From: Acidiphilium sp. 37-60-79
Lineage (GTDB): Bacteria > Pseudomonadota > Alphaproteobacteria > Acetobacterales > Acetobacteraceae
Direction: 5' to 3'
Assembly (NCBI GenBank): GCA_002279355.1
Contig: NCBV01000018.1
Location: forward strand, 1 to 54,099
Length of the DNA: 54,099 bases
Shown here: positions 28,410 through 31,583 of the stretch, in pieces
Layout of the letters: the number at the start of each line of letters is the position of its first letter
Numbering within the stretch: position 1 is the first letter of the stretch
The notes under the pieces: model-generated
The model's input: only the letters and a program-made list of their open reading frames with translations
Told to the model about the DNA's origin: nothing
Databases searched by the model: none
Program-made: the position numbers and the translations under genes

Positions 28410-29036
28410 TCAGGGGGTTATTTTTCGCGGGGGCGCGGCAAACCAGGTGAACGGGCGGTGATGCTGTGGCCGGTTAGCGACGGGCCGTGATGGCGGTGGT
28501 GGCGGCGGTGGAGCAAAAGATTTGCGGATCGGTTGGGGGCGCTGGAGTGGCGGCAATGGGGCGATATTGAGCAGGTGGCAGAGCGGGCGCAGGGCGCGGC
28601 CGATGGTGGGGTGGCTGGTGATGAGGGCGATCATTTCCGGGTCATCGAGCAAGGCGATGAGTTGGCCACGGGCGGTGGCGGCATCTGACTGCGGCAGCAG
28701 GCGCAGCAGCCAGCCCATGCGGGTGGGCAGGCGGAGCGGGGCGTGGGTGCCGGGGTTTGCCAGTGTGGGGTTTGCCAGTGTGGGGTTTGCCAGTGTGGGG
28801 TTTGGCGGTTTTGCCCCAGGGGTGGGGCGGGGTTTGCGCGGGGCGATGGGGCCGCGTGCGAGGGTCGCGAAAAAGCGGTTGCGCAGGGCGCAAATGCGGC
28901 GATAGATCAGCACAGCGAACGCGCTTGAGACCGGCGAGGATTTGCCCCGGTTGGCGAGGGCAGCCACGATCAACTTGATGATGAAGCTGAAGCGGTCGGT
29001 GAGCAGAACCGGCGGCGGAGGGGGAACCCAGGGCAT
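28410..29036 (-). CDS. Proline-rich hypothetical protein with internal repeat
   Basis: This 208-residue basic, proline-rich protein opens with a Pro run, has an Arg/Lys/Pro-rich middle containing three PTLAN repeats, then a helical block MGWLLRLLPQSDAATARGQL and PTIGRALRPLCHLLNI before a second proline run. I do not recognise a named family; the middle helical block looks like the part under constraint. No convincing ribosome-binding site precedes the ATG at 29036, so the start is uncertain and a later start near the helical block is possible. Confidence 0.5.
   Translation of the reverse strand: MPWVPPPPPVLLTDRFSFIIKLIVAALANRGKSSPVSSAFAVLIYRRICALRNRFFATLARGPIAPRKPRPTPGAKPPNPTLANPTLANPTLANPGTHAPLRLPTRMGWLLRLLPQSDAATARGQLIALLDDPEMIALITSHPTIGRALRPLCHLLNIAPLPPLQRPQPIRKSFAPPPPPPPSRPVANRPQHHRPFTWFAAPPRKITP
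28756..28800. repeat. Three perfect 15-bp tandem repeats
   Basis: The unit TTTGCCAGTGTGGGG occurs three times without a mismatch (28756-28770, 28771-28785, 28786-28800). The period is a multiple of three, so the minus-strand gene around it keeps frame and gains the peptide repeat PTLAN. Length polymorphism by replication slippage would be expected. Confidence 0.9.
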
Positions 29037-29127: not shown

Positions 29128-29985
29128 TTAGCGCGTCGAACTGGCGGTAACTTGGCGGGCGCGGAGGCGGCGGATGCGGCGGGCGTCTGCGTCGAGGATC
29201 AAAAATTCGATGCCTGAAGGGTGGCGCAGAATCTCGCCCCGGGTGGGGACGCGACCGGCGAGGGTGAAGACGAGGCCGCCGATCGTGTCGATGTCGGCGT
29301 GGCGTTCTTCTTCGGTGAGGATGTCTCCGAAGCGGGCGACGAAATCTTCGAGCGGCAGGCGGGCGTTCAGATCGACGCTGCCATCGTCGCGTTCGATCAG
29401 CATCGGGCCTTCGATTTCGTCATGTTCGTCATCAATGTCACCGACGATGGTCTCAACCAGATCTTCGATGGTGACCAGGCCATCGACGCCGCCATATTCA
29501 TCGATGACCAAAGCGAGATGGGTGCGGCGCTGGCGCATTTGCCAGAGCAGGTCGAGCACCGGCATTTGCGGGGCGACCATCAGGGGTTTGCGCAGGATGG
29601 TGCGGAGCGAAAAATTTTCGGGCGGACCCGCATAGGCCACAACGTCTTTGATATGGACCATGCCGAGAATGTCATCGAGATGCTCGCCATAGACGGGCAT
29701 GCGCGAATGGCCTTCGCGGCGGATTTGGGTGATCGCTTGCTCAAGGCTGACATCGGCGCGCATCGCGATGATGTCAGCGCGGGGGATCATCACGTCATCG
29801 GCGGCGGTGCCGCGCAGGCGCAGCACGTTGGCGATCAAGGCGCGTTCTTGCGGGTCGAGCCCGGTGCCGCCGCCTTGGGCGCCGATTTCGGCTTGGGCCT
29901 CTTCCATCAAATCGCCGATTTGCTGGCGCAAATCGGGTTGTTCGCGCATTTTGCTGAGAAGTTTACCGAACCAGGAGCCGCTCAT
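29128..29985 (-). CDS. corC: CorC/HlyC-type CBS-domain protein (hemolysin family)
   Basis: This 285-residue cytoplasmic protein has two CBS domains (about residues 65-190: DVMIPRADIIAMRADVSLEQ and VIDEYGGVDGLVTIEDLVE) and a C-terminal CorC_HlyC domain (EERHADIDTIGGLVFTLAGR). It lacks the DUF21 membrane part, as usual for the short CorC form encoded after ybeY; such proteins are linked to magnesium/cobalt homeostasis and membrane integrity. There is no ribosome-binding site. The ATG sits in an ATGA overlap with a 23-codon reading frame and inside the arm of a perfect 12-bp hairpin, which suggests strict translational coupling. An AT-rich patch (29081-29118) follows. Confidence 0.9.
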   Translation of the reverse strand: MSGSWFGKLLSKMREQPDLRQQIGDLMEEAQAEIGAQGGGTGLDPQERALIANVLRLRGTAADDVMIPRADIIAMRADVSLEQAITQIRREGHSRMPVYGEHLDDILGMVHIKDVVAYAGPPENFSLRTILRKPLMVAPQMPVLDLLWQMRQRRTHLALVIDEYGGVDGLVTIEDLVETIVGDIDDEHDEIEGPMLIERDDGSVDLNARLPLEDFVARFGDILTEEERHADIDTIGGLVFTLAGRVPTRGEILRHPSGIEFLILDADARRIRRLRARQVTASSTR

Positions 29986-30007
29986 GATGGCGTCCCGCCA
30001 TCATGAG
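29981..30007 (-). promoter_or_regulatory. Perfect hairpin occluding the corC start codon
   Basis: CTCATGATGGCG and CGCCATCATGAG are perfect inverted repeats of 12 bp with a 3-base loop. On the minus-strand mRNA the second arm contains the corC ATG (29985-29983) and the stop codon of the preceding 23-codon frame. Ribosomes finishing that frame would have to open the hairpin, so corC initiation should depend on upstream translation. The junction between the two short frames (30045-30070) can form a similar but imperfect hairpin. Confidence 0.6.
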
Positions 30008-30053
30008 TGGATATTTGGCGCGCAGCCGCCACACCAACCCTGCGCGCGTTCAT
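29982..30053 (-). CDS. 23-residue coupled leader-like peptide B
   Basis: This is a 24-codon frame (with stop) starting MNARRVGVAAARQ and ending with a Gly/Thr/Pro/Ser tail. Its ATG overlaps the stop of peptide A (ATGA) and its stop overlaps the corC ATG (ATGA). It differs from peptide A at four residues only (Val14 to Ile, Ala16 to Thr, Pro21 to Thr, Thr23 to Ser). No database family is known to me; it may be a leader peptide rather than a functional product. Confidence 0.45.
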   Translation of the reverse strand: MNARRVGVAAARQISTHDGGTPS

Positions 30054-30121
30054 GTTGGCGGCCCGCCATCATGAGCGGATACTTGGCGCGCAGCCGCCAC
30101 ACCAACCCTGCGCGCGTTCAT
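30050..30121 (-). CDS. 23-residue coupled leader-like peptide A
   Basis: This 24-codon frame starts in an ATGA overlap with the ybeY stop and ends in an ATGA overlap with peptide B. The peptide is basic in its first half (MNARRVGVAAARQ) and Gly/Pro-rich at the end. Its existence is inferred only from the stop-start chain and the exact duplication; there is no separate ribosome-binding site, consistent with re-initiation by ribosomes leaving ybeY. Confidence 0.45.
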   Translation of the reverse strand: MNARRVGVAAARQVSAHDGGPPT

Positions 30122-30585
30122 GATGGCGGCTTCCAGGGGTTGGGGATTTTTAGGTGGGCGAGCAGGCGGGATTCCAGCCGTTCCATGCGGATGGCATCGC
30201 CGGCATGGTCATGATCGTGGCCGGCGAGATGCAGGGCGCCGTGGATGACCAAATGGGCGAGATGATGGGCGGGCGAGCGCTGGGCGGCGCGGGCTTCGCG
30301 CAGGATGGTGCCCAGCGCGAGGATGATTTCCGGTGGGGCTTCGTAGGTCAGCACGTTGGTGGGTTTGTTGCGCCCACGATCCCGCCCGTTGAGGCGTTTG
30401 ACCGTGCGATCATCCGAGAGGATGACGGTGGCGGGGCAGTTGGTCAACGCGAGGGCGCGGGCGATCAGCCGCGTGGCGGCGGGGGCGACGGCGTGCCAGC
30501 GTGGGTCCGCGATGATGATGTCCCCGCGCACCGGCAAAGCCGGGCGCGGGAGACGAGGGGATGGTTCGGGGGGCGGTTGGTCCAT
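30118..30585 (-). CDS. ybeY: Endoribonuclease/rRNA maturation factor YbeY
   Basis: This 155-residue protein carries the zinc site of the YbeY family in HLVIHGALHLAGHDHDHA (three His) and the conserved NGRDRGRNKPTNVLTYE segment. YbeY takes part in 16S rRNA 3'-end maturation and ribosome quality control. The ATG shares one base with the phoH stop (TAATG), and its own stop overlaps the first of two short coupled frames. The N-terminus is Pro/Arg-rich and may be dispensable. Confidence 0.93.
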   Translation of the reverse strand: MDQPPPEPSPRLPRPALPVRGDIIIADPRWHAVAPAATRLIARALALTNCPATVILSDDRTVKRLNGRDRGRNKPTNVLTYEAPPEIILALGTILREARAAQRSPAHHLAHLVIHGALHLAGHDHDHAGDAIRMERLESRLLAHLKIPNPWKPPS

Positions 30586-31583
30586 TAAAATCCGCGCGCG
30601 CGCTCCTGTTGGGCGGCGATGCGCTGGTCATAGGCATCGACGATGCGCGCGACCAAGGGGTGGCGCACCACATCGCTCACGGTGAAGCGGGCGAAGCCGA
30701 TGCCGGGGATGCCTTCCAGCGTATCGAGCGCATCGGCGAGGCCGGAGCGAGCGCCGTTGGGCAGATCGATTTGGGTGAGGTCTCCGGTGATCACCATGCG
30801 GGTGCCTTCGCCCATGCGGGTGAGGAACATTTTCATTTGCACCGGCGTGGTGTTTTGCGCTTCATCGAGAATGACGAAGGCATGGGCGAGGGTGCGGCCG
30901 CGCATGAAGGCGAGCGGGGCGATTTCGATTTCGCCAGCGGCCATGCGGCGGGTCATTTGATCGCCGGGGAGCAGGTCTTGCAGGGCATCGTAGAGCGGGC
31001 GGAGATAGGGATCGACTTTTTCCTTCATGTCGCCGGGGAGAAAGCCGAGCCGTTCGCCCGCTTCGACCGCTGGGCGGGAGAGGACGATGCGATCAACCCG
31101 GCCAGAGATCAGCATGGCGACGGCTTGGGCGACGGCAAGATAGGTTTTGCCGGTGCCTGCGGGGCCGAGGGCAAACACCATTTCATGTTTGGCGAGCAGC
31201 TCGATATAGCCGGTTTGGCCGGGGCTGCGCGGGCCGACAGCGCCTTTGCGGGTGCGGATGGCCGGGAGATCCGACAAGGGTAAGCGCGGATCGGCGGCGG
31301 GATCGACCAAGCGGGCGGCGGCATCGACTTCGGCGACGCTGATCGCTTCGCCTTTGGTCAAGCGTTGATAGAGCGAGGATAAAGCGGTTTCGGCGGCTTC
31401 GACGCGGCTGGCTTCGCCGGTGATCGAGACGCGGTTGCCCCGGCAGGCGAGGCGGACACCGAGGCGCTGTTCGATGCGCATCAAGTGGCGATCATGATCG
31501 CCGAGCAAGATGGAGAGCAGCGCATTGTCAGCGAAGGTGACGGTGCGGGCGAGTTTGGCTTCGGTGGACAGGATCTGGCTCAA
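30585..31583 (-). CDS. ybeZ: PhoH-like ATPase (YbeZ)
   Basis: This 332-residue PhoH-family P-loop ATPase has an N-terminal KH-like region, then Walker [20 protein letters not shown], the DEAQN Walker B in [16 protein letters not shown], and [20 protein letters not shown]. It is probably an RNA helicase/ATPase partner of YbeY. It begins with TTG at 31583 in a TTGA overlap with the miaB stop; an AGGGAG lies about 12 bases upstream. The order miaB-phoH-ybeY-corC is a conserved proteobacterial arrangement. Confidence 0.92.

What the first reader, a model, noticed from the sequence alone, without database searches (positions are those of the whole stretch)
29982..30121. A duplicated 68-bp cassette forms a four-member stop-start chain ybeY - peptide A - peptide B - corC
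Seen directly: two 68-bp units (64/68 identical) lie between ybeY and corC. Each encodes a 23-residue frame, and every junction is an ATGA overlap: ybeY/peptide A at 30118-30121, A/B at 30050-30053, B/corC at 29982-29985. The unit runs exactly from ATGA to ATGA, so it can be added or removed without breaking coupling. All four differences between the copies change an amino acid. I know of no described leader-peptide relay of this kind in the ybeY-corC region. The inference is that it tunes corC translation relative to ybeY, or that it is a modular insert that spreads at stop-start junctions.
Basis: partly seen in the sequence, partly recalled or inferred. Interest (0 to 1): 0.75.

Follow-up and report, generated by a model that had tools for sequence, protein, structure and literature searches.

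The report
Stop-codon-targeting mobile repeat between two genes
The duplicated 68-base unit looks like a local remnant of a small mobile DNA repeat, present in many related acetic-acid-type bacteria, that tends to sit exactly at gene stop codons and here lies between two overlapping genes without cutting off the second one.

Summary
In detail: two 68-bp units (64/68 identical) lie between ybeY and corC, joined by ATGA overlaps. The unit contains a 30-bp hairpin core dispersed in Acetobacteraceae (62 copies in one genome, 36 in another; two here, both at this junction). Elsewhere the core is the middle of a ~123-bp, three-hairpin, MITE-like element flanked by a 3-bp TNA repeat, mostly TGA. In 29 of 44 delimited copies with a left-hand stop triplet, that triplet is the in-frame stop of the upstream ORF (background 53 of 914 TGAs). 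At ybeY-corC, 5 of 13 congeneric genomes are filled and 8 empty; sister species differ. All five filled junctions keep an open ATGA-to-ATGA chain into corC. Best reading: a stop-codon-targeting palindromic element entered the overlap, its end plus the repeated TGA rebuilt the start codon, and selection kept the frame open so ribosomes reach corC. A tuning role for the peptides is unsupported; most copies elsewhere are not in gene overlaps; the moving enzyme is unknown.

The parts
30585..31583 (-). phoH-like gene upstream of ybeY; its stop overlaps the ybeY start (TAATG)
   Evidence: Pfam PhoH E 2.5e-91; sequence
30118..30585 (-). ybeY; its TGA stop lies inside the first ATGA
   Evidence: Pfam YbeY E 2.6e-19
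30054..30121 (-). unit 1 (68 bp, ATGA to ATGA)
29986..30053 (-). unit 2 (68 bp, ATGA to ATGA), 64/68 identical to unit 1
30050..30121 (-). 23-codon bridging frame A, ends in ATGA
29982..30053 (-). 23-codon bridging frame B, ends in the corC ATGA
30086..30115 (-). core hairpin 1, GCGCGCAG-GGTTGGTGTGGCGG-CTGCGCGC, of the dispersed Acetobacteraceae element
30018..30047 (-). core hairpin 2, same sequence
30050..30074 (-). right-hand hairpin of unit 1 (TCATGATGGCG...CGCCAACATGA), ends in the start codon of frame B
   Evidence: sequence; predicted fold
29982..30006 (-). right-hand hairpin of unit 2 (TCATGATGGCG-GGA-CGCCATCATGA); its 3' arm holds the corC start codon
   Evidence: inverted repeat; predicted folds
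29128..29985 (-). corC, starting at the last ATGA
   Evidence: Pfam CBS and CorC_HlyC; matches from residue 1 in the genus

Best explanation
The cassette is a truncated, tandemly duplicated relative of a small MITE-like palindromic element of Acetobacteraceae. The full element has three hairpins, TACC...GGTA ends and a 3-bp TNA flanking repeat, and is found mostly with TGA at its left end, often the stop codon of the upstream ORF, in one orientation (shown by comparison). When it enters the TGA of an ATGA stop-start overlap, the upstream copy of TGA still ends the first gene. The last base of the element (A) plus the second TGA rebuilds ATGA, so the second gene keeps a start codon (anatomy shown; the insertion step is inferred). 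The insert moves that start 65-133 bases away from the ybeY stop and, by prediction, pairs it in the right-hand hairpin. Ribosomes can then reach corC efficiently only if the insert is itself a frame running ATGA to ATGA; translating it would melt the hairpin and reload the ribosome at corC (inferred). Selection against losing corC keeps the frame open while the peptide sequence drifts (inferred). The second 68-bp unit is a tandem duplication of an ATGA-to-ATGA segment, which cannot break such a chain.
For: The core is dispersed in the family: 60 of 397 genomes have a match at E<=1e-6 (counted by eye; 375 of 397 at the loose limit E<=1, mostly noise). Copy numbers at up to 3 mismatches are 62, 36 and 17 in three genomes and 0-5 in the genus, with the reversed-pattern control at 0. 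Of 47 delimited copies (of 82), 39 have equal flanking triplets (permutation mean 33.2, P 1e-4), mostly TGA. The left triplet is the in-frame stop of a long ORF in 29 of 44 copies against 53 of 914 background TGAs. One stop-codon site is filled in G352 and shows no element in the 60 bases printed for each of 15 related loci. At ybeY-corC, 5 of 13 genomes are filled and 8 empty (the decayed fifth copy was recognised by eye), with two sister pairs differing. All 5 filled junctions chain ATGA to ATGA into corC, with lengths 68, 80, 86 and 119, all 2 mod 3, whereas 44 of 47 dispersed copies are 0 or 1 mod 3. The AUG is paired in the predicted hairpin of all 6 units despite different sequences.
Against: The junction copies lack the left hairpin and the TACC/GGTA ends, so they are relatives or remnants, not full copies. 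8 of 47 delimited copies have unequal flanks, and 35 of 82 could not be delimited. Most dispersed copies are not at gene overlaps. Filled and empty species are interspersed on the tree, and several insertions versus one insertion with repeated loss is not resolved. Only four different lengths support frame selection (chance about 1/81 if independent). The corC AUG is also often paired in empty junctions (unpaired probability 0.00-0.41 against 0.00-0.16 in filled ones), and three of six hairpins are only 1.9-2.0 sd below shuffles. G096 and G309 show a GGAG motif upstream of corC, so independent initiation is possible there. No expression data were available.
Confidence: 0.7

Rival explanations
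1. A true regulatory leader-peptide relay: peptides A and B, or the pausing of ribosomes on them, set the CorC:YbeY ratio or sense a condition.
For: Frames open in all 5 filled junctions; start-codon hairpins predicted in all 6 units despite sequence change.
Against: 8 of 13 congeners have a bare overlap. Peptide tails differ between species. The shared part (ARRVGVAAAR and close variants) follows from the core DNA, which is conserved in dispersed copies as well. The window genome has two units and its nearest relative G370 one.
Confidence: 0.12
2. Neutral relic: the insert is merely tolerated and corC starts on its own; open frames and phase are chance.
For: All three forward frames of the core are open (by reading); in dispersed copies the ATGA frame has no stop in 27 of 47; G096 and G309 have GGAG motifs near the corC start; the own genome has no other copies at up to 3 mismatches.
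Against: Four different insert lengths are all 2 mod 3, and G309 has a 42-bp in-frame duplication; even the decayed core of G328 keeps the chain.
Confidence: 0.2
3. A structured RNA (attenuator or riboswitch-like) whose conserved internal loop binds something.
For: The core is a highly conserved stem with an asymmetric internal loop GGGTTG / GTGTGGCGG, whose distal part can be very short or a long stem (11 of 20 extra G352 loci); some stem changes are compensated (4 of 82 copies A-T for G-C at one pair; variant core in 4 of 20).
Against: No Rfam family at gathering score in 8 loci. Copies often follow stop codons, and 27 of 47 have a converging ORF nearby by a crude rule (counted by eye); copy number bursts in single lineages.
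Confidence: 0.1

Closest known systems
Bacterial MITEs, e.g. Chunjie of Geobacter (passage and reference entry in PMC10969869)
   Same: Short, non-coding, dispersed, flanked by a short direct repeat, found in operons; the title of the cited Chunjie paper says it entered an operon without disturbing its structure, although the review's passage says that it disrupts one operon copy
   Different: Three separate hairpins rather than one plain pair of terminal inverted repeats; often at stop codons in fixed orientation; no parent IS identified
REP/BIME elements, including GTAG REPs that often supply a TAG stop to flanking ORFs (passage in PMC3733652)
   Same: Small palindromes near gene 3' ends that contribute stop codons; mosaic arrangement
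   Different: Direct-repeat flanks; no Y1/RAYT transposase in 12 of 13 genomes; presence of a GTAG/CGTC tag was not tested
Rickettsia palindromic elements (passages in PMC10969869)
   Same: Palindromic repeats compatible with translation
   Different: RPEs insert in frame inside ORFs; this one sits at the stop/start overlap and makes separate short frames
IS1031 group of the IS5 family (TNA target, 3-bp repeat, TGA in the case described; passage in PMC12016507)
   Same: Same target and repeat length
   Different: The terminal repeat given in that passage differs from TACC...; no link to this element shown

Membership tests
MITE (non-autonomous DNA transposon) | Dispersed multi-copy short element without a transposase gene | tested here: met
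   62, 36 and 17 core copies in three genomes; delimited copies mostly 123-124 bp
MITE (non-autonomous DNA transposon) | Flanking target-site duplication | tested here: met
   39 of 47 equal triplets, P 1e-4; non-TGA pairs TAA/TAA x2 and TCA/TCA; 8 of 47 unequal, 35 of 82 not delimited
MITE (non-autonomous DNA transposon) | Terminal inverted repeats | tested here: inconclusive
   Outer ends TACC...GGTA, but each terminal hairpin is self-complementary and the junction copies lack these ends
MITE (non-autonomous DNA transposon) | Mobility: filled against empty sites | tested here: met
   ybeY-corC, 5 filled and 8 empty; one G352 stop-codon site against 15 related loci
MITE (non-autonomous DNA transposon) | Autonomous parent element with the same ends | not tested
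   DDE_Tnp_1 genes occur in 13 of 14 genomes, but their ends were not compared
REP/REPIN moved by RAYT | RAYT (Y1_Tnp) gene in genomes rich in the repeat | tested here: not met
   PF01797 found in 1 of 13 genomes (G096) and not in G352, G197 or G166
Known structured RNA family | Rfam match at gathering score | tested here: not met
   None in 8 loci; at lax E-values only miRNA models and one mycobacterial sRNA model, all far below cut-off
Translationally coupled leader ORF | Overlapping stop-start and open frame into the downstream gene, conserved in relatives | tested here: met
   5 of 5 filled junctions
Translationally coupled leader ORF | Downstream translation depends on leader translation | not testable with these tools
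   Needs reporter or ribosome profiling data

The most novel reading that the evidence does not exclude
A family of mobile palindromic elements specialised for stop codons: it inserts in one orientation into TGA, and because its last base is A the duplicated TGA rebuilds ATGA (right end ATGA in 37 of 47 delimited copies). It can therefore enter translationally coupled gene pairs and leave both the upstream stop and the downstream start intact, with its own body serving as an open, ribosome-passable bridge. Operon-safe transposition would be built into the target choice and the element's end.
Probability: 0.38. Interest if true: 0.8.

Novelty: new variant of a known kind. Interest (0 to 1): 0.6.

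Why it matters
Short repeats near gene ends are common, but precise, oriented occupancy of stop codons, with regeneration of a coupled start where genes overlap, is unusual. It would explain how repeats can colonise dense bacterial genomes without polar effects. It also gives a natural series (empty, one unit, two units, in-frame double, decayed) at one junction for testing how termination-reinitiation coupling spans an insert. The element is abundant in some members of a large family, and I found neither an Rfam match at gathering score nor a description in the papers searched.

Tried and rejected
G-quadruplex loop: GGTTGGTGTGGCGG has four GG runs and resembles a known aptamer (recalled, no call). 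ViennaRNA with the quadruplex option prefers it by only about 0.6 kcal/mol in three of four forward core forms and not in the CT form. In 11 of 20 further G352 loci an inserted stem splits the second GG. Kept only as a minor possibility.

REP/RAYT system: no Y1 transposase in the copy-rich genomes. Known RNA families: no gathering-level matches in 8 loci; lax searches gave only weak matches to unrelated models. Plasmid or phage carriage of the core: only 20-27 nt matches with E of 0.06 or more, in 40 Rhizobium/Sinorhizobium plasmid records and one phage record. Wide spread beyond the family: exact 27-mer in 2 of 385 genomes of the class, the own genome and one of another family; only 5 members of the own family were in that draw.

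Start-codon occlusion as a clean difference between filled and empty junctions: only a trend. A second ATGA chain in G352 (L217): the insertion at the upstream stop is clear, but the native start of the downstream gene is uncertain. An autonomous parent IS was not found; IS ends were not compared. Assembly artefact: unlikely, because the two units differ at 4 sites, but reads were not available. A first, stricter delimiting rule gave 21 of 27 equal flanks (P 8.5e-4); the looser rule is the one quoted.

Papers: ten searches listed no paper that I recognised as describing this element; five 17-letter forms of the core occur in no held paper. This covers open-licence PMC texts only, and apart from the passages below I saw titles and abstract beginnings. 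I saw passages of PMC3733652, PMC10969869, PMC2229807 and PMC12016507, nothing longer.

Full report
What is there. On the minus strand the order is phoH, ybeY, two 68-bp units, corC. The units differ at 4 of 68 positions. Each runs exactly from ATGA to ATGA and opens a 23-codon frame. TRF and repeat search recover the array independently. The whole stretch is strongly structured (z -4.3, none of 200 shuffles as stable). In the predicted fold the corC start codon lies in the 3' arm of a long helix.

What the unit is made of. A 152-base query found only this locus in the own genome. Across 397 genomes of the family it hit short, very similar stretches: E<=1e-6 in 60 of 397 by my count of the listing (375 of 397 at E<=1, mostly noise). 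At most two candidates were scored in each genome, so 60 is a lower bound. The shared stretch is the hairpin core GCGCGCAGGGTTGGTGTGGCGGCTGCGCGC, usually followed by CCAAA or a close variant. With up to 3 mismatches to its inner 28 bases there are 62 copies in G352, 36 in G197, 17 in G166, 4 in G083, 3 in G292 and 2 in G216 (six genomes chosen because one search had shown hits). In the genus there are 5 in G370, 3 in G196, 2 in G309, 1 in G096, 2 in G000 and 0 in the other 8 of 13 genomes. The backwards control pattern gave 0 in all. In the genus of G352, the other 20 genomes have 0 to 5 copies at up to 2 mismatches against 54 in G352, i.e. a lineage-specific burst.

The complete element. Oriented on the core, 82 copies (80 fetched loci of six genomes) mostly show one layout: left hairpin (TACC...GGTA), core, about 12 nt beginning CCAAA, right hairpin (TACC...GGTA). 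Hairpin sequences differ between genomes but pair within a copy. For 47 of the 82 both outer ends could be set by a complementarity rule; the other 35 did not pass and were dropped, among them all four G370 copies. The usual length is 123-124 bp. The flanking triplets are equal in 39 of 47 (36 TGA, 2 TAA, 1 TCA) and unequal in 8; shuffling the right ends gives a mean of 33.2 and P 1e-4. A stricter first rule gave 21 of 27. By eye, three of the dropped G370 copies are TAA/TAA twice and TTA/TTA once. This fits a 3-bp TNA duplication with a strong preference for TGA read in the direction of the core (left flank TGA in 42 of 47, TCA in 1).

Stop codons. Using a crude ORF rule (at least 80 open codons, GC3 above GC2 by 0.1), the left triplet is the in-frame stop of the upstream ORF in 29 of the 44 copies whose left triplet is a stop (G352 14 of 25, G197 14 of 17, G166 1 of 2). 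Background TGA triplets in the same loci pass the rule in 53 of 914 (odds ratio 31, Fisher P 6e-23; copies within a genome are not fully independent and genes were not annotated). Stop-start overlaps are not the usual site: a long open frame begins at the right-hand ATGA in only 6 of 47, and reading those translations leaves at most one plausible gene start (L217). At L217 the element begins at the TGA of a gene that I read as STAS-domain, followed by a CheR-like gene (labels from recall; the Pfam check failed). None of 15 related loci shows the element in the 60 bases printed after that stop.

The ybeY-corC junction in the genus. Eight of 13 genomes have a bare ATGA or GTGA overlap and five carry an insert. 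None of the 74 loci from outside the genus with both genes held the core (up to 6 edits; L032-L035 are taken as genus members, L076 and L085 lack ybeY). A tree of PhoH, YbeY and CorC puts filled G096 beside empty G263 and filled G309 beside empty G232, both with support 100 (G309 has only 96 residues of CorC). In the bases printed, G263 and G096 agree upstream up to ATGA and differ at one base just after the downstream ATGA. Whether there were several insertions or one with losses is open. The shared left-less form argues for one origin; the near-consensus cores, different right hairpins and empty sisters argue for more.

Frame and hairpin. In all five filled junctions the ATG of the ybeY ATGA opens a frame, or two frames in series, that ends in the ATGA of corC: 23+23, 23, 27, 40 and 29 codons. 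The insert lengths 68, 80, 86 and 119 are all 2 mod 3. The element plus its repeat elsewhere is 0 mod 3 in 30, 1 in 14 and 2 in 3 of 47. If the four lengths are independent, chance is about 1/81; if they derive from one insertion, the changes of length are all multiples of three, as is the 42-bp duplication in G309. The core lies in the same phase to the ATGA as in 43 of 47 dispersed copies (phase of the junction copies by reading). In each of six units the next start codon is paired in a predicted hairpin (z from -5.7 to -1.9, three of six between -1.9 and -2.1), although the arms differ in sequence between lineages. Accessibility of the corC AUG over a longer window is low in filled junctions (0.00-0.16) but also in several empty ones (0.00-0.41), so occlusion is a trend only.

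Mechanism. Shown: a dispersed, palindromic, TNA-flanked element that often occupies stop codons; a relative of it in the ATGA overlap of ybeY-corC; chains kept open in all five filled genomes. Inferred: insertion into TGA duplicates it, and because the element ends in A the downstream copy again reads ATGA. Corollary: such an insertion in a coupled pair leaves both genes with their signals but separates them, so the body must be read through for coupling to survive. The peptides are then a means of passage rather than products. Their common part comes from the core, which is as conserved in the dispersed copies (those copies were collected by similarity to the core, which inflates the conservation). 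The 68-bp duplication is harmless by construction.

Further anatomy. Of 20 further G352 loci fetched for their right hairpin, 11 have the core loop opened by an extra stem between GGGTTG and GTGTGGCGG, and 4 carry a variant core with compensated stem changes. The conserved thing is therefore a stem with an asymmetric internal loop, not simply a G-rich loop. No gathering-level Rfam match was found in 8 loci; lax searches gave only weak matches to unrelated models. The Y1 transposase family is absent from the copy-rich genomes. TNA with a 3-bp repeat is the target of the IS1031 group (passage of PMC12016507), which is a lead for the missing enzyme and no more.

Known or new. Palindromic repeats that provide stop codons (GTAG REPs, passage in PMC3733652) and MITEs in operons (PMC10969869, passage and reference entry) are known. 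Ten searches of open-licence papers (listed under Tried and rejected) showed me no description of this element, of five 17-letter forms of its core, or of an element defined by stop-codon insertion. I rate it a new variant of a known kind.

Noticed in passing
28752-28804: A perfect 15-bp tandem repeat (3.5 copies) inside the frame downstream of corC, coding an ANPTL-type repeat.
   Followed up: no
L292, L295, L296, L297, L300, L301, L304, L306-L309 (G352): Copies of the element whose core loop is opened by a long stem (CCCATCGAAGCTTTGCTTCGATGGG type), showing an asymmetric conserved internal loop; Rfam search of seven G352 loci, five of them of this type, gave one weak unrelated match.
   Followed up: partly
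L293, L294, L302, L305 (G352): A second core type, GCACGCCGGGTTGGYGGGCGGCGGCGTGC, with compensated stem changes, in otherwise similar elements.
   Followed up: no
L113 / L032, end of ybeY: In G370 the YbeY C-terminus carries an in-frame extra stretch (ACAGCCATTCATACCCGGAGCGTA) before the junction, possibly a remnant of the element's left hairpin.
   Followed up: no
L004 (G282:C53) and L005 (G355:C25): Tandem arrays of the core (72-bp spacing in L004, about 41-bp in L005), so tandem growth recurs in other lineages.
   Followed up: no
L259, L260 (G451, another alphaproteobacterial family): The exact core occurs outside the family, flanked by different sequence; horizontal transfer or an older origin.
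   Followed up: no
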